Shown here piece after piece: positions 17,287 through 35,300 of a stretch of 41,689 nt of DNA. The notes beneath the pieces were generated by a model. That model had not been told where the DNA came from, did not search any database, and saw only the letters and a program-made list of their open reading frames with translations. The number at the start of each line of letters is the position of its first letter. Positions within the stretch are counted from its first letter, which is position 1. A program made the translations under genes and the position numbers. Source of the DNA: Gryganskiella cystojenkinii (lineage: Eukaryota; Mortierellomycota; Mortierellomycetes; Mortierellales; Mortierellaceae); NCBI GenBank assembly GCA_015852425.1, contig JAAAIG010000287.1:1-41689 (forward strand), given 5' to 3'.

Positions 17287-18151
17287 AAAAAATACTAAGG
17301 ATGATTGAAAGAGAAGATGTTAGAAAGACTTTAATGGAAATGTTAAAAAGGAAAATATAATACGGAACTAGACTATGGCGTGTTAGTAAAGGGAAATGAA
17401 AAGAGTGGAGAGTGGAGGGGAAATCGTTTGTTTCGATCATGGGCTGTTGAAGCCTACAATTTCGCTGTTGAAGCAAAGAGAAACTAGCAAAAAAGAAAAG
17501 GAGTCTTTTTTCTTTCTTTTTTCGAGCCTTCTTCACCTATTCTTGAGTTTTTCAGATTTGAGTGGGTTAAATAGAAAAAGAAAGAGTCTTTCATTTTTCT
17601 CTCTATCCAAAAACAAAAGAAAAGCTCAACAAGATTCAGCTGGAGAAAAAGAGAAAAAGAAGGTCAGTCCAGGTCAAAACGGGGCCACTGATCATTTTCT
17701 GCTCGCTCTTGGTGTTGAAGAAGAGTGGGAAAAGAACCAGGTAAGCCGATTGTAAATGAGGAGGAACAACCAGGCGAATCACCGCCAGAGGTGGTTGTTC
17801 TCTCATATCAATACTCGTTATTTTTTTTTTGCCGACTGGAGTATGCGCATCTATTCACAAGAGAAAGAGAATGGATGGAGAACAGAGAGTGACGGGTATA
17901 ACATGAGAAAGATATAGACTGAATGGGACGGGGAAATGGATAATAGAAAAAAAAAGAAAAGGAATGGAAAAGTTATTTTCATCGGCATATCTCTTTATCA
18001 CCACGACACACGACTCGGAGGAAGAGAATGAAAACACGGAGCGGGAGGTTAGCGGAGGAAATCTGGAGCCAGTGCCCGATCGGGACCCGAAAAGTGAAGG
18101 TGCTGGGGTATGAAAGGGATCGACTCGAAGTCGAAAGGACGCAGAGAGCGA
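17287..18151. other. Intergenic, purine/pyrimidine-rich, with a doubtful exon-like segment
   Basis: It holds the 3' flanks of two convergent genes. A plus-strand open segment (about 17624-17749) ends in NGATDHFLLALGVEEEWEKN plus one Gln, followed by a good gtaagc donor. I could find no start or partner exon, so I do not call a gene. T-runs occur at 17821-17830. Confidence 0.3.
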
Positions 18152-18439
18152 CTAAGCACTGTGTCTTCGGGATTGCTGATCTCTCTGCTGAGCGAGTGGG
18201 TCATGGACCATGATCGAAGGCGCCTGACCCCAAGGGGCACGAGACATAGGCATGAGGCTCTCGAGAACCTGGGAACGGGTAGTAATTCTAGGTGAATCGG
18301 GCGATGGACGCGTATAGGCCACGTTGCGGAGCTGGACGACTCTAGGAGAAACCGGGGAGGACGAGGAGGCCGTCGAAGCGACGGAGACACGGTCCTCTTC
18401 GATCTGGATGTAACCCTGGCGTTGGATTTGGTGCGACAT
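18152..18439 (-). CDS. Small Ser/Arg-rich protein of unknown function
   Basis: I do not recognise this protein. It is an intact single-exon frame of 95 residues starting MSHQIQRQGYIQIEEDRVS. Codons are strongly biased to C or G at the third position, like neighbouring real genes and unlike the intergenic frames, which is the main reason to call it. Residues 20-33 are a Ser/Thr/Pro-rich patch with SP sites (SSSSPVSP). The central RVVQLRNVAYTRP looks like a beta strand, and the tail is rich in Gln and Arg. There is no signal peptide or membrane segment. A TATAAATA-like element lies at about 18664-18675 on the minus strand, roughly 230 bases upstream of the ATG. Confidence 0.55.
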   Translation of the reverse strand: MSHQIQRQGYIQIEEDRVSVASTASSSSPVSPRVVQLRNVAYTRPSPDSPRITTRSQVLESLMPMSRAPWGQAPSIMVHDPLAQQRDQQSRRHSA

Positions 18440-19094
18440 AGTTGGAATAAACGAACAGCTGCGAAGAGTTAAAGAGAGTGAAGTGCTAGAAGGGACTTGT
18501 TGACTTAAGGATCTGAGGGGTGCGGGTGATGAACTGTTGCTTTGTGCTTGAGAATGTACTGTAATAGTGGTTTGGTCGTGCGTTGTAGTGCTTCAGGTGA
18601 AATCTCGGTATCCTTGGTAATATTGAGGTGATCAGAAAGGGGGATGGAACAAAACCTTTGACCTATATTTATATTTTCCAGGATCTATCAAAGTGCACGG
18701 CTGTTTTCTCACAAAAAGTTCAGCTGCGATTGGCGATGAGTCAGAGCGTACAGTGTCACCGCTGGGGCCGTTCGTTTCTCCATTGACTTCGGTGTATGTT
18801 TTGACATCTCTCAATCTGGTCGCTTATTATTCTTTTTTTTTCTTTTCTTTTTCCAACTCCTCAGTCGAAAGTTCTTCAGGAGCGCAGAAAGCCGGGGGAG
18901 GGTGATTTGTTGGGACAGCAGTGGTGTATAAAGAGACAGTGCTGATCTCGAATTGACTTTGTCTTCGCTTTGCCTCTTTGAAGTTTGTCGGACATTTTGA
19001 CCTGACTGGAACTCTAAAAGTCGTGATTGAGTCGTGCCTGCGCTGCGGAGGGCGTAGACTTTTAGTAATACAAAGTCCTTCCAACTCTAACCAA
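18440..19094. other. Gene-free stretch upstream of the small minus-strand gene
   Basis: It carries the presumed promoter of the small protein, including an AT-rich TATA-like element (atatttatatttt, 18664-18676). No open frame shows codon bias. Confidence 0.35.
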
Positions 19095-19150
19095 CCCACC
19101 TCATCAACCACCTCATCGTTCAGCTGATACCCACCTCATACCCACCTCAT
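19095..19150 (+). repeat. Short imperfect repeats of cccacctcat
   Basis: The decamer cccacctcat or a close variant occurs four times, at 19095-19104, about 19108-19116, 19130-19139 and 19141-19150. The array sits about 75 bases left of the large inverted repeat and may mark an unstable insertion region. Confidence 0.6.
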
Positions 19151-19223
19151 CGTACATGACGACCTCCCTGGGTTTCAAGTAGCGACGACTTCAAACCAGT
19201 TGACAATTAGTCCCTCCCTCACA

Positions 19224-19523
19224 AAAGTTGGTCGGCCACACAAAAATTCGTATCTCCACCAAAAAAGGAAGTGCGACCAGGATTTCGTTTGACGACCAAC
19301 GACCAACTGCTGTCTTGAAAGCCTGGCAAATTTCCCTATATTTTTGACATCCCTGTCACTCGTCGCCCGAGCAGAATAATAACTTTTCTTGCAGGGATGT
19401 CAAAAATATAGGGAAATTTGCCAGGCTTTCAAGACAGCAGTTGGTCGTTGGTCGTCAAACGAAATCCTGGTCGCACTTCCTTTTTTGGTGGAGATACGAA
19501 TTTTTGTGTGGCCGACCAACTTT
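19224..19523. repeat. Perfect 132-bp inverted repeat with 36-base spacer (foldback element or hairpin RNA locus)
   Basis: Bases 19224-19355 and 19392-19523 are exact reverse complements over all 132 positions, separated by a 36-base spacer (19356-19391). Identity stops abruptly at both outer ends (caca before, cgcg after), and I find no direct repeat there that would be a target-site duplication. Each arm contains several TGGTCG words (see findings). The spacer has no open frame. The structure could be a foldback or MITE-like mobile element, or a transcribed hairpin giving double-stranded RNA. It lies in the intergenic space 181 bases past the stop codon of the hydrolase-phosphatase gene, so it could also be in that gene's 3' untranslated region. 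Confidence 0.97.
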
Positions 19524-19704
19524 CGCGTGGGAAGAACAACGTAGACCTACAAATACTATCGTCTATTTCTCTTTAGTTTATTATCATCGCTCTTGCATAA
19601 TAACATGCTCTGGTTCCTAATGTTAGCAACACAATGCACGAGTTCTCTTCTCGATTCGATCGAGAAGAGAGAGCGGCAGTGAACAGCAACGAGTCCTGTC
19701 TTTT

Positions 19705-22159
19705 TCACAGAGCAGATCGAGGAAGAGGGATGGTGACGACAAGAGCATCATGGACTTCCTGGATCTGTTCATTGGTCAATTGCATCTCCTTCATCAAGAA
19801 CTCGTGGATTGTTCCATATTTTGTATGGAACTTTTCCAAGAACCGGGTCATATACTCGGCCCTTTTCGGCAAAAGTCAAATTTTATAGTCAGCAACCGCG
19901 GCTTTTTGTTCTGATCTCGTTTGTAGACATTCTCATGCAGTCAAGGTGGCTTTTACTTACTTTGCAGAGAGCGCCTCACGAACCTTGGAATCTGCAGTTT
20001 CGTCACCGATAAATGTTTTAAGGAACTGGACATCTTCTTCTTTGACTACAAACCATTATGAGAATAAAAGGCATTAGTTAGATAAGCTTACGCGAATAAT
20101 ATTTTAGACATTTGTGTAACCCTTTTTTTTTTTGGCGCGTATCGCTGCCTCGGAAAAAGAAGAAAATGACTTACTAGCCATGCACCGTCTCGTCAACTCG
20201 TACTCCCAAGCGATCGTCTCCTCGTCCACTCCACATATCAGCTGTAACAGCGCGCATACGACCCCGGTTCTGTCCTTTCCAGCCGTACAATGGACAATAA
20301 ATGGTGTCCGCTTTTTGACGACATGATCCAGGACGGGTTGGAAAAAGTTTTTAATTGTGGGCATCATTGACATGTAGGCATCCGCAAAGCCTTCGGTGCC
20401 TCCAAGGTACATGGCAAACCTGGCGGCGATTTTCACAGGGGAGTAATCCTCGTCCGCAAAAACCGGTATATGGTGTCTCTTGATCTTGTCCACTTGGCTG
20501 TTGCATGTTAAAAACAAGCAGTGAGTTCTTAGCCTGTTCATGTACATGACTACTCAATCAGGTCAAAATACTTACAAGGTCCCTCGGCGCTCGACCTCTG
20601 AGGTCGACCGGAGATCATAGACATCTGTGATGTTAAGAGCCTTCAAGACCTTGATACCCTCTTCCGTTGGACTCGAGATACTAAAAGATAGAGATTCAGG
20701 ACCTTGCAGTTAGAAAATCAGACTGTCCTCGCCTTTGTTTGGATTTTTTTTTCGCCATTACAAGAATATTGCTCACAACACCATACTCTGCACAGCGATA
20801 GATAACACCTGGTCGGAGGTATTTGACGGTCCCATCGTTCTTGGATGGGATCCAGGTATCGCCCACGGTTCTAAAGTTCAAAACGCCACCGACAGCGTTG
20901 ACCCAAGTCTTCCAGTTTGGCATGATCCGTCTTGTCCAATCTTCCTTACGACCCTCGACCGAAAAGTAATGGGCGACAGTCTCGGAGATCTCTTTGATAT
21001 GATCCCGATAGTTGTGGTCTGCGTTGGTGATGATACGGACGGTCGTGTTGGCATGCGAAAGGTGAGACTGGAGCGTAGCCACATCCTTGACAGGCACGAC
21101 AGCATCCTCGGATCCGTGACAGAGTAAGATGTTGGTCATCGAGGGGATGTTGACCACTACGAAGAAAAAAATCGAGGGATGTTAGACTGAGCAAGGCGGA
21201 CGGAACCATGGGCTGGACGGGTCAATCCCAGATCACTGCTTACCAGTCTTGGTGTTAAAGTTGATGAAATCATCAAAGTTTTGTCTAGTGACTCGGAGCG
21301 ACACCTCTTTTCCGGCCGCATGAGCGACCCAGTCAAAGTAGCCTTCGTCGTCCATCATGTTCATGACATGTTTGCCATGACGTCTCTTGACGTCGGCCAT
21401 ATCGAACCGAGTCGAGATACTGACGATATGGGGGATTAGCGGTGCATGGTTCGACAGTGCGGCATAATTCAACATTGAGATCGCTCCACGAGAATGACCG
21501 ATCAGAGCATAGATCTCATATCCCCGTTGTTCCCAGTAATTGACAACTGTATCGATATCCTCAAAGTCGTCGTCCCAGTTCGAGTAACCCATCTGGCCCT
21601 CAGACTCGCCGTTACCTCTGTCAAAAATCGCGTCCATATTATCAAGTTAGGAAGAAACCACCAAAAGTTAACCTCTTGACCTTTGTGGCTCTACACTTGG
21701 ACATCCAAATCAACAAACGATTCGTTTTTTTTTCCTTGGTCACCTGTAATCAAAGCGGAACGTGTCCATGTACGGCGCCAACAGATTGGCTAACAAGGGC
21801 TGAAAGAGATAGTTCTTGTGGCCTGCATATCGCGCAAGTTGTTTTATGATAGAGGATGCGCAGAGTGATCAAAAGACGCACAAACACGCAAACAAAAGAA
21901 TGTCTTCGTGAGCCGAGGGAAATTGTGAGGAAGTGAACGCTTCTGATTTTTTTTTTTCTTGCATTCTCTCAATTCGACAGGGAGATGCGTGGTCTCTCTG
22001 CTTACCGAGTACGCCATGACCGATGATTCCGAGTCGGCGCGTTGGATGGTTTGTAGACTGGAGAATACCAGCGAGAGTCAAGCTCTTATCTGGAATGGCA
22101 ATCCGAACGTTGGTGAGGGTCCCTTGGATAGGACCCAGATCGACTCTTTCTTTTGCCAT
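19705..22159 (-). CDS. Fusion of alpha/beta hydrolase and tyrosine phosphatase
   Basis: Eight exons are inferred: 22159-22006, 21822-21744, 21617-21244, 21156-20787, 20680-20576, 20497-20175, 20045-19961 and 19861-19705. They give 548 residues with all junctions in frame. Residues 1-265 form a serine hydrolase: oxyanion-loop HGVLGHKNY, nucleophile motif GHSRGA with Ser120, Asp220 in HGSEDAVVP and His250 in NADHNYR, so the triad is complete. Residues from about 290 form a fungal/bacterial type dual-specificity or phosphoinositide-like phosphatase (Y_phosphatase3). They include NFRTVGD, RPGVIYRC, a YDLRS strand, and the P-loop HCTAGKDRTGV with Cys431 and Arg437. The protein lacks a signal peptide or membrane segment, so I expect it in the cytosol. 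Substrates of either domain are unknown. The fourth donor (gtatgg) was chosen because it alone keeps the frame. Confidence 0.85.
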
Positions 22160-27030: not shown

Positions 27031-29033
27031 TCACCACCACAGACTGACAACATGGTGATCCACCTTGGGGAACAAGATATTCAACAGCATCTTTGACTCG
27101 CCATCCCTCACAAAACTCTCTCCGTACATCTCCAACAGTTGATCCACATCCACATCGCCCAACACCAACTTTGTAAACGACAGCGGCGAGAATGACCCTC
27201 CAAAGATCAGCGGACCAGGCGCGTCGTTCGTACCTTCATCCATTCTCTTTCTCTCCGCCAACATTAACTCTTCACCCGTGAGCGGTCGCCAATCGTTTGT
27301 GACCTCGACAACCCTGCCGTTCTTAAAGACAACCTCCAACCCACGACCGGAGCATCCCTCAACCTTCTTGAAGAAATCCAACTGCATCGAGGCCGAGATT
27401 CCTCGGAAAGCCGACTTTGAAAGACGTTCCTCCAGAACCGGTGCGACCTTCAAGATGAAGCCAGCATAATTGTTCATGCGGGTGTAAATCCGGTCGTTGA
27501 TATCCGGTTGCGAGATGGAGGTCATGATCACACTTGCTGGATGGTGAGGCCCCAGTCCGTTGATGACGTGGTCAATCATGGACGGCTCAGGATCGTTTGG
27601 GTTATCATATCGATCCTTGGCGCATTTGAGCATCGCTCTCAGGACTGGGAAAGTTGCCTCATGGTACGTGATGCCTTCAATGGACTCGTCCATTACAAAC
27701 AGATCCCATTGCCAAAGACCCATAAATGACGTGACCGACACGCCAACATCTTTACCGGTCTTGGCATCGACCACGATCCGGGTCTGGCGCGAGCCATCAA
27801 ACATGGACTGCTTGGTCTCGTAGACATCATGGATCGTAAACTTCCAGTAGGCCTCGTCAAAGGTCAGACCGACCTCGGTACCAGGTCGGTGCAGTTTCTC
27901 TCGGGTGCTCATGCAGAGCAGGTAAGGGATATCCGCAAGCGTGACCAGTCGCACAGTAAAAGGCTCCGGAACTTTTGGGTTTGCCTTGGGGACTTGATCT
28001 ATCGAGGCGACCCTGGATCTCTTGGGGCCGGTGCGAAGTCCATAAGTGTACCCGAATTGTCTAAAATAAAGGAAAGTAGCGACAACTTGTTAGTGCTTCT
28101 GTGCATATTTTGAGATATTCGCGAGCTAGTAAATCTCGATTCGAGTCAAGCGTACGTACAGGTAGAAGTGAGGGATACCATAAATGAACTGGATCAGATC
28201 TCCTCGCTCATCAGAGGCTGGATGGACCATCTCAAGAAGCAAGCGGCGAATGAGTCCTCGGTTGCGGAAGTCTATATACACCGAGCGACGTTTTTGTCAG
28301 CATGCTTGTACTCAGAAAGGTACCTGCATCATAATATTTCTATAAGAGGTAAGTAAGTAGGGCTACCTGGATGTGTAGCAAAGACCTCGGGCTTGCCAAA
28401 CTGAATGGGAACCGAGCCATAATATCCTGGGACCGCATGAAGACAACCACAAGCGACGATCGGGTTCTCGTGTGGACCAGCTTTAGTGTTCTCCACCAAT
28501 GCATAATCGTATACGGTCATCACGGCACTATTGCCCCGCATGAGTCGTCTCTACAGTAATGAGAACCGCCAGCGAAAAGAACAGTAGTTGATATTGAAAC
28601 AGATTGAAACGTGAGTTCAAAAGATACAAAAGACACTGGATGATCACTTTTTCGTCGCTCTCTCTTTCTTTGAAAGGCAACGAGAGAGAGGGGGGGAAAT
28701 GAACTGATCGTCCCAACAGAAATGACTCTGTACTTACACCTGAGGCTGTCACCATTTCGTTTGGGGGTGGGTACTCACCAGGAGGCAAAGGAATGCCGAG
28801 CTGTTCCCACTATCCAAGATCCCAACCGATGCAATTAGCAGTCAGTAAGAGACAAAGAATGGGAAGTTTTCTTGGAAATGAACACATATTCTTCAGGCTA
28901 GTACCTGAAAGGCTTTGCCGCACAAGGCGCCAATGTTTTCGCAATCCTCTTGGGTAGACCAGCGCATGATGAGGCCATCACCGAGGTCGATTCGCTCGGG
29001 TCTTGGGCCAGGTTTGAGTGCAAAGATTGTCAT
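27031..29033 (-). CDS. GNAT-family N-acetyltransferase of the Eis/SCP2 type
   Basis: Five exons (29033-28905, 28809-28738, 28550-28367, 28271-28160, 28060-27031) give 508 residues, all joined in frame. The N-terminal half is a GNAT fold: LGDGLIMRWSTQEDCENI, ACGCLHAVP, VFATHPDFRNRGLIRRLLLE. The last includes the RxxG acetyl-CoA loop. IYGIPHFYLQFGYTYG then matches the GNAT segment with a Tyr that often acts as acid. A second, degenerate acyltransferase region and a C-terminal sterol-carrier-like domain follow (RGLEVVFKNGRVVEVTNDW). This order is that of bacterial Eis acetyltransferases, though the substrate here is unknown. No signal peptide is seen. The start lies next to a GGAA repeat in the leader. 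The gene diverges from scm3. Confidence 0.8.
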
Positions 29034-32390: not shown

Positions 32391-35300
32391 TTAAGCGCGG
32401 GCCTGAGCCTTGGCAGCCATCTGGTTCAAGGCGGAGCCGAACTTGAACCACTTGATCTGATCCTCGTTGAAGGTGTGGTTGAGCTTGATATCGATCTCAG
32501 AGCCATTCTCCTTCTTGACGTGCAAGTTCAGGGGGACACCCTCCTTGAAGGAGGTCAAGCCCTGGATGGAAACCTTGTCAAAGGGAGCAATCTTGTCGTA
32601 ATCGGCAGGGTTGGCGAAGGTCAAGGGCAAGAGACCCTGCTTCTTGCAGTTGGTCTCGTGAATACGGGCAAAGGACTTGGTGATGACAGCAGCACCTCCG
32701 AGGTGACGGACCTCCAAGGCAGCGTGCTCACGGGAGGAACCCTCACCGTAGTTCTCGTCACCAATGACGATCCAGGGGACGTTCTTAGCCTTGTAGTCAC
32801 GGGCGACACCGGGGACGGTATCGTACTCACCAGTCAACTGGTTCTTGACAGAGTTGACACCGAGGTTCTCAGAGTTGAGGGCACCGATCAACATGTTGTT
32901 AGAGATGTTGTCCAAGTGACCACGGAACTTCAACCAGGGACCAGCCATGGAGATATGATCGGTCGTGCACTTGCCCTTGACCTTGATCAAAATGGGCATG
33001 TCGTTCATGTCCTTGCCATCCCACTTCTTGAAAGGCTCGAGGAGCTGGAGACGGTTGGAGGTAGGCGAAACCTTGACGGAGACGTGACCCTTCTCGGTAG
33101 GAGGGGCCTGGTAGGTCTCCTCACCGGGATCGTAGCCGCGGGGGGGAAGCTCGTTACCGTTGGGGCTAGAGAACTTGAAGGGCTTGCCATCGGCACCGAT
33201 GAGGGTGTCCTTGGTGGGGTCGAAAGTCAAATCACCGGCAAAGGTCATGGCAGTGACAATCTCGGGCGAGGCGACGAAAGCATGGGTCTGGGGGTTGGCA
33301 TCGTTACGTCCGGTAAAGTTGCGGTTGTAGGAGGTAATGATAGAGTTCTTGGTGCCCTTGGGGACATCCTGACGATCCCACTGACCAATGCAGGGACCGC
33401 AAGCGTTGGCGAGGACAACTCCACCGGCATCGTTGAGGATGCCCATCTGACCGTCACGCTCGATGGTGGCACGAATCTGCTCGGAACCGGGGGTGATGGT
33501 GAAGATAGACTTGCACTTCAAGCCGTGGTCGAGAGCCTCCTTGGCGATCGAGGCAGAACGGGACATATCCTCATAAGAAGAGTTGGTGCAGGAACCAATC
33601 AAACCGACCTCGAGCTTGGCGGGCCAGTTGTTGGCAATGACAGTCTCCTTGAACTTGCTGAGAGGGGTGGCAAGATCGGGGGTGAAGGGACCGTTGATGT
33701 GGGGCTCCAAGGTGTTGAGATCAATCTCAATGACCTGATCGTAGTGAGCACCGGCATCGGCCTTCAAGTTGTGCTGGAAGGAATCGGCCCACTCGGCAAT
33801 GTAGGGGCGAGTGGTGGCCTTGAGGTAATCAGACATGCGAGAGTTGTAAGGGAAGAGAGAGGTAGTGGCACCAATCTCAGCACCCATGTTACAGATGGTG
33901 GCCATACCAGTGCAGGACAAGGTGTCGACACCGGGTCCGAAGTACTCGACGATGGCACCGGTACCACCCTTGACGGTGAGAATACCAGCAACCTTCAAGA
34001 TGACATCCTTGGCCGAGGTCCAGCCAGACATCTTTCCGGTCAACTTGACACCAATGACCTTGGGGCACTTGAGCTCCCAGGGAATATCGGCCATGACATC
34101 GACAGCATCAGCTCCACCGACACCAATGGCGACCATACCGAGACCACCGGCGTTGGGGGTGTGGGAATCGGTACCGATCATCAAACCACCGGGGAAGGCA
34201 TAGTTCTCGAGAATGATCTGGTGAATAATACCAGAGCCGGGTCTCCAGAAACCGAGACCGTACTTGGCGCAGGAAGTCGACAAGAAGTCGTAGACCTCCT
34301 TGTTGATATCCTTGGCACGAGTCAAGTCCTTGACGCCTCCGATCTGGGCCTCAATCAAATGGTCGCAGTGGACGGTGGAGGGAACGGCAACGTTGGGGAG
34401 ACCGGCAGACATGAACTGGAGCAAAGCCATCTATTGGATTGCGAGAATCATCGCACAAGGTAAGAACGAGGAGCATCGTTAGAGACATGTCATGGTGCTT
34501 ATTATGCGCTTCCAGTAGCTTCTATCTGAAAAAGATTAGATCGGCCTTTTTTTCGCTGTCCCGTCTCTCTCCCAGCCTCTCCTGTGAAAAACAATAACAA
34601 ACGGCATATTGGTTGCTCCTCCAATCCCGACCGGGCGGCAATCCAAACTCAGCCATGGCCAGAAAAATCCAGAGAGCCTTTTCACGTTGAGATTTGATTT
34701 GCACGATAGTAGAGATACGCCTCGCTCCTCTCTTTTTGAGTTTTCGTCTCCCCCTTATGACAATCGATCTACACATAGGTTGTCGTTGTTGATATTATGC
34801 GCATCCATCCACGATCCTAGATCTGGATTATGAAAAGAGAGGGAAAAGCTTACCTGGGCAGTAGCATCCTGGCAGGCAACACGATCGGGACGGAGCTTGA
34901 GGTAGGACTTTCCACGCTCAATATCCTGGTTGTGGGCATCATCCAAATGACCGTAGACGATCTTCTCGGCGAGGGTCATAGGCTGGTTGAGTCTGTTGGA
35001 TAGATATCATTGTCGAATGGTGAAAGGATAGGGAAAAAAACGAGGGGTGGTGTCGTCGTCGGTGGTTTGAGAATCAGTTTCGGGGAAACCGAAAAATGAA
35101 ATATTTTTTGTTTGGTTGTGTTTGTTTATGTTTGGTTCGGTCGGTCGGAAATGGGAAAAGTGAAGGGGTGACGAAAATTCGAAGGGGGTTGTAAAAAAAG
35201 AGACTTGGTTAGATGGGGAACTTGTGTTGAGGATGTGGGTAAAAGACAAGAGGTGGTGGGTTTCTTCCGAAAGGAGAAAGAAGGAGATGTTGACTCCCCT

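What the first reader, a model, noticed from the sequence alone, without database searches (positions are those of the whole stretch)
19224..19523. Perfect 132-bp inverted repeat around a 36-base spacer
Both arms match at all 132 positions as reverse complements. Random drift would introduce mismatches quickly, so the structure is either very recent, under gene conversion, or kept as a functional hairpin. Transcription across it would give a 132-bp perfect duplex, an ideal Dicer substrate for siRNA production. No transposase frame and no clear target-site duplication are visible, so it may be a non-autonomous foldback/MITE element or an undescribed hairpin RNA locus.
Basis: seen in the sequence. 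Interest (0 to 1): 0.78.

Follow-up and report, generated by a model that had tools for sequence, protein, structure and literature searches.

The report
Transposon relic with copied inverted arm
An old, decayed mobile-DNA fragment in a soil fungus seems to have had one of its arms rewritten as an exact mirror copy of the other, probably by a DNA-copying slip, which gives a perfect hairpin without any sign so far that the hairpin itself has a job.

Summary
A further 14 bp on each side pairs at 9 of 14. The host is the soil fungus Gryganskiella cystojenkinii. Left arm and spacer are colinear with a decayed, low-copy repeat family found at 8 other loci; self-BLAST found long inverted arms in 0 of these 8. 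Seven aligned copies differ from the arm by 17-39% overall (10-26% in best local pieces), yet the two arms differ at 0 of 132. All 16 substitutions and 68 deleted columns that set the left arm apart from the family majority are also in the right arm. All 5 mismatches lie in the outermost 14 bp, where the right end still resembles the family terminus. Best explanation: an old MITE/foldback-type relic whose right half was recently overwritten by a reverse-complement copy of its left half (template switch, or conversion/abortive gap repair). The mechanism is inferred. An RNA function is untested: Argonaute-like and Dicer-like genes exist, but no transcript data. Short-read merging of near-identical arms cannot be excluded. 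A new example of a known kind; modest interest.

The parts
19210..19223 (+). Left element terminus (diverged terminal inverted repeat)
   Evidence: GTCCCTCCCTCACA; 9 of 14 pair with 19524-19537; preceded by TA; only weak resemblance to the L003 terminus (395 of 19,834 random window 14-mers score as well)
19224..19355 (+). Left arm: decayed copy of the repeat family, the inferred donor
   Evidence: colinear with family units in the alignment of 7 copies; identical to the right arm 132/132
19356..19391 (+). Spacer: continuation of the family body with an internal deletion of about 37 alignment columns
   Evidence: alignment; blastn of window 19341-19400 to L005, L009, L007 and L008 at 83-88% in pieces that stop at 19392; deleted columns 105 in all minus 68 in the arm
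19392..19523 (-). Right arm: reverse-complement copy of the left arm, the inferred recipient
   Evidence: shares 16/16 substitutions and 68/68 deleted columns of the left arm relative to the family majority; the match of the spacer to family copies ends at 19392
19524..19537 (-). Right element terminus, inferred to be older than the right arm
   Evidence: reverse complement GTTCTTCCCACGCG resembles the L003 terminus; 18 of 19,834 random window 14-mers score as well (yardstick chosen after seeing the sequence)
19577..19582 (-). Candidate poly(A) signal AATAAA of the neighbouring minus-strand gene, between its stop and the repeat
   Evidence: pattern match; consensus match only
19705..20553 (-). 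3' exons of a Y_phosphatase3-type tyrosine phosphatase gene; the repeat lies about 170 bp beyond its stop
   Evidence: Pfam PF13350 on window:19708-19875:- and 20107-20553:-; exon limits inferred

Best explanation
An old, degenerate copy of a small, apparently non-autonomous DNA element (MITE/foldback type) with short, diverged terminal inverted repeats. Recently its right half was overwritten by a reverse-complement copy of its left half. Shown: arm identity, colinearity of left arm and spacer with the family, and the left arm's private changes in both arms. Inferred: DNA synthesis left the right strand just after ..CTTTTCTTG (zero to one base of homology at that junction), copied the left arm outward, and rejoined the right side within a pre-existing terminal repeat. 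That is a quasipalindrome-to-palindrome template switch, or equally conversion or abortive gap repair between inverted ends. The hairpin is read as a by-product with no demonstrated function.
For: Perfect arms 132/132 but 5 mismatches in the outer 14; p = 3.9e-6 if mismatches fell uniformly over 146 positions. Seven aligned family copies differ from the right arm by 17-39% and from the arm by 10-26% in local BLAST pieces of 22-91 bp, against a 95% upper bound of 2.2% between the arms. The arms share 16 of 16 substitutions and 68 of 68 deleted columns relative to the family majority. Left arm plus spacer continue the family body up to 19392, the sequence beyond does not. Self-BLAST at E <= 1e-3 found long inverted arms in 0 of 8 loci of the same subfamily. 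The right terminus alone resembles the family end (18 of 19,834 random 14-mers). Flanks matched nothing else in the genome. Precedent for the mechanism: abstract of PMC8794818, passages of PMC8604942 and PMC7954356.
Against: No ancestral or sister allele was available, so direction and single-event nature are inferred. A copied tract of 132 bp is longer than the longest event (128) in the great-ape gold-standard set, whose median is 12 (passage in PMC7954356). The alignment has many indels, only 7 copies, and one of them (L004) carries a local inversion. Weaker inverted similarity does exist in relatives: 41 nt at 73% and 26 nt at 92% in L003, 35 nt at 74% in L005. A related element (C175, L031) has foldback arms at 83% and C558 has 49-bp perfect terminal arms, so palindromic members occur in the wider clan. 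The left terminus resembles the family end only weakly (395 of 19,834).
Confidence: 0.72

Rival explanations
1. A foldback/long-TIR MITE that inserted recently as a complete palindrome and has not had time to diverge.
For: C175 element has 118-125-bp inverted arms; C558 element is 152 bp with 49-bp perfect terminal arms and TA on both sides, so such elements exist in this genome.
Against: No near-identical copy elsewhere in the assembly; aligned relatives are 17-39% diverged overall and 10-26% in local pieces; the element's own two ends differ at 5 of 14 while the interior differs at 0 of 132; no TSD (TA left, AA right).
Confidence: 0.13
2. Assembly effect: a real imperfect inverted repeat whose near-identical arms were merged to one sequence by a short-read assembler, or whose spacer orientation is arbitrary.
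For: Assembly is in 1050 contigs. Low-coverage genomes (about 10x) have been used for zygomycete phylogenomics, and multi-locus plus low-coverage sequencing for Mortierellomycotina genera (passages in PMC10386755). A 132-bp perfect repeat exceeds common k-mers (recalled).
Against: The two arms end in clearly different sequence on their outer sides, the flanks match nothing else, and the whole 328-bp element fits inside an ordinary read pair (recalled). How this genome was sequenced was not seen: the paper that might say so is not held.
Confidence: 0.1
3. A functional hairpin RNA or inverted-repeat siRNA locus, kept perfect by selection or conversion, acting on related repeats.
For: Piwi domains, 11 matches on 6 contigs, and two genes with paired RNase III domains; exact 21-mers of the arm occur in 3 other family loci (C466, C462, C884).
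Against: No transcript or small-RNA data; a candidate poly(A) signal of the neighbouring gene precedes the repeat; no second locus with the same hairpin was found; in the RNase III gene pieces scanned no Dicer-dimer or helicase domain was reported and one PAZ match is below its cut-off (the pieces are cut by locus ends).
Confidence: 0.05

Closest known systems
Quasipalindrome-to-palindrome template switching (abstract of PMC8794818; passages of PMC8604942 and PMC7954356)
   Same: inverted arms made identical by copying one into the other; reverse-complement tract with sharp ends
   Different: the yeast examples in the passages seen have arms up to 16 bp and the ape set a median copied tract of 12 (maximum 128); here 132 bp, with no ancestral allele available. 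PMC8604942 also says that homogenisation of long inverted repeats has been reported many times
TIR extension by recruitment of internal sequence in Galileo (passages of PMC3573991; one section and passages of PMC4168063)
   Same: non-TIR internal element sequence becomes part of both inverted ends; recombination/conversion, and template switching during gap repair, are proposed there
   Different: Galileo is a P-superfamily element with TIRs of hundreds of bp and 7-8-bp TSDs; here a 328-bp element, no transposase sought, no TSD at this locus
MITEs / foldback elements (definition recalled)
   Same: short, non-coding, inverted ends, dispersed low-copy relatives with similar termini
   Different: the 8 same-subfamily loci lack the long inverted arm; TSD not seen at this locus

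Membership tests
MITE (TIR-bearing non-autonomous DNA element) | dispersed relatives sharing the terminus | tested here: met
   8 other loci with body matches; similar left termini read at C466, C462, C331 and C811; the terminus pattern with up to 3 mismatches gave 4 sites, two of them the ends of this element, and 0 for the reversed control
MITE (TIR-bearing non-autonomous DNA element) | terminal inverted repeats | tested here: met
   the outer 14 bp pair at 9 of 14; resemblance to the family terminus is good on the right, weak on the left
MITE (TIR-bearing non-autonomous DNA element) | target-site duplication | tested here: not met
   TA left, AA right at this locus; TA on both sides in 2 of 4 small related elements scored (C558, C67; in C67 it could be a longer TAATA), not in C856 or C23; C762, C831 and C873 were seen but not scored
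MITE (TIR-bearing non-autonomous DNA element) | autonomous partner with transposase | not tested
   no transposase search was made in the genome
Foldback element | long inverted arms characteristic of the family | tested here: not met
   0 of 8 same-subfamily loci have them; C175 in a sister subfamily does, at 83%
Template-switch-homogenised quasipalindrome | arms identical and sharing changes absent from relatives | tested here: met
   16/16 substitutions, 68/68 deleted columns; follows from arm identity plus the family comparison
Template-switch-homogenised quasipalindrome | ancestral imperfect form at the same locus | not testable with these tools
   no relatives of G000 are held
Hairpin siRNA locus | transcription and arm-derived small RNAs | not testable with these tools
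   no expression data on hand

The most novel reading that the evidence does not exclude
In this fungal repeat clan, decayed single-ended copies are repeatedly re-made into perfect foldbacks in place by template switching between short diverged ends, producing new Dicer-substrate hairpins that silence the remaining copies.
Probability: 0.05. Interest if true: 0.65.

Novelty: new member of a known kind. Interest (0 to 1): 0.27.

Why it matters
It is a natural example, with relatives to polarise it, of how a long perfect inverted repeat can arise on an old transposon relic. It illustrates that perfect arm identity dates the last copying event, not the insertion, and it is a caution against reading perfect hairpins as functional or as young insertions.

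Tried and rejected
Rfam search of 18000-21000 at E <= 1: 6 matches; five miRNA-family matches lie on the hairpin, all below gathering scores (for example 52.5 against 84 bits); the sixth, CLRN1-AS1 at 19836-19913, lies outside it and is also below. Rejected as shape or chance matches. The L003 inverted pair 1461-1501 / 1783-1823 was first taken as that element's two ends; the right part is better read as a small element with CCCTACACAAACTTGAG ends joined there, but this was not settled. Coding potential of the arms: stop-to-stop frames of 53-90 aa touch the repeat; none was tested against protein families. A paper search for Mortierella with MITE and terminal inverted repeat found 0 papers; the cited Mortierellaceae phylogenomics paper is not held. 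A transposase partner was not sought: I spent the 12 genome searches on other questions. In the alignment, L012 (C811) was left out as short and rearranged, and L011, L013 and L018 are further pieces of loci already represented.

Full report
What is there. Arms 19224-19355 and 19392-19523 are perfect reverse complements over 132 bp with a 36-nt spacer; the next 14 bp outward pair at 9 of 14 and then homology ends. It is the strongest inverted repeat that one search lists in the window, and it folds far below 100 shuffles. The finding is confirmed to the base.

Where it is. A protein of the window (27031-27954, minus) is identical to one from Gryganskiella cystojenkinii on a contig of the same length, 41,689 bp; this is a Mortierellaceae fungus. 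The repeat lies about 170 bp beyond the stop of a minus-strand tyrosine phosphatase gene (PF13350), with an AATAAA between the two. On the other side no gene was identified (the frame at 18155-18592 has no Pfam match). Neither flank matched anything else in the genome (the tool warns that no match does not prove rarity).

Relatives. The arm has no near-identical copy in the 35-Mb assembly; it has patchy relatives at C466, C462 and C884. Using the C466 copy as query adds C551, C331, C453, C265 and C811, making 8 loci of the same subfamily. In an alignment of seven of these (L012 at C811 left out), the window's left arm and spacer follow the family body in one orientation, with internal deletions in the arm and one in the spacer. 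Self-BLAST of the minus strand at E <= 1e-3 found long inverted arms in 0 of the 8 loci; L003 has a 26-nt pair at 92%. A looser search shows weaker pairs, 41 nt at 73% in L003 and 35 nt at 74% in L005. More distant members of the clan do have inverted arms: C175 with 118-125-bp arms at 83%, about as far apart as C175 is from the C971 copy (86%), and a 152-bp element on C558 with 49 bp perfect from the ends and TA on both sides.

Dating argument. The seven copies differ from the right arm by 17-39% over aligned columns, and by 10-26% in local BLAST pieces of 22-91 bp, so the insertion is old. The arms differ at 0 of 132 (95% upper bound 2.2%). In columns where at least four copies agree, the left arm has 16 substitutions and 68 deleted columns against the majority; the right arm has every one. 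This follows from their identity, but it means that the right arm was made, or remade, after those changes. All five mismatches of the 146-bp pairing sit in the outer 14 bp (p = 3.9e-6 under a uniform model; approximate, because the extent of the pairing was set by homology). The right outer 14 bp by itself resembles the L003 terminus (18 of 19,834 random 14-mers as good); the left does so only weakly (395 of 19,834) (yardstick chosen after seeing the sequences). So two old, diverged ends appear to enclose a young mirror copy.

Mechanism (inferred). The spacer-side junction has zero to one base of shared sequence; the outer junction lies inside sequence shared by the two ends. This is what is expected if synthesis snapped back onto the left arm and returned by homology within the short terminal repeat. 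Template switching that turns imperfect into perfect inverted repeats is documented (abstract of PMC8794818; passages of PMC8604942, and PMC7954356); for perfect inverted repeats with arms up to 142 bp in Nematomorpha mitochondria it is named as one possible mechanism (passages of PMC6649704). [quoted passage not shown] Replication template switch, gene conversion and abortive gap repair cannot be told apart here.

RNA function. The genome has Piwi-domain matches (11 on 6 contigs) and two genes with paired RNase III domains (a PAZ match below cut-off in one; no Dicer-dimer or helicase domain reported in the cut pieces scanned), so a transcribed hairpin could be processed. Exact 21-mers of the arm occur in three other family loci (C466, C462, C884). 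No expression data were on hand; this remains a possibility with low weight.

Limits. No relatives of this genome were held, no reads, and the tool states that the genome gives no file, so a genome-wide count of similar palindromes was not made. A short-read assembler could have merged nearly identical arms; how the genome was sequenced was not seen.

Noticed in passing
L004 (C462:14562-14611): In this family copy a segment of about 50 bp just inside the left terminus is inverted relative to the rest of the unit, a second local inversion in the same family.
   Followed up: partly
L070 (C558:24069-24220): A 152-bp element with 49-bp perfect terminal inverted repeats, GGTCG-rich, flanked by TA on both sides; looks like a young MITE of the wider clan.
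   Followed up: partly
L031 / L043 (C175:33159-33639): A foldback-like element of a sister subfamily with 118-125-bp arms at 83% identity.
   Followed up: partly
L008 / L013 (C331:73500-73845): A family copy carrying an insertion that splits its left part.
   Followed up: no
window 32391-34430: A 679-aa minus-strand frame that looks like aconitase (recalled, no family search) with a 700-aa open frame on the opposite strand.
   Followed up: no
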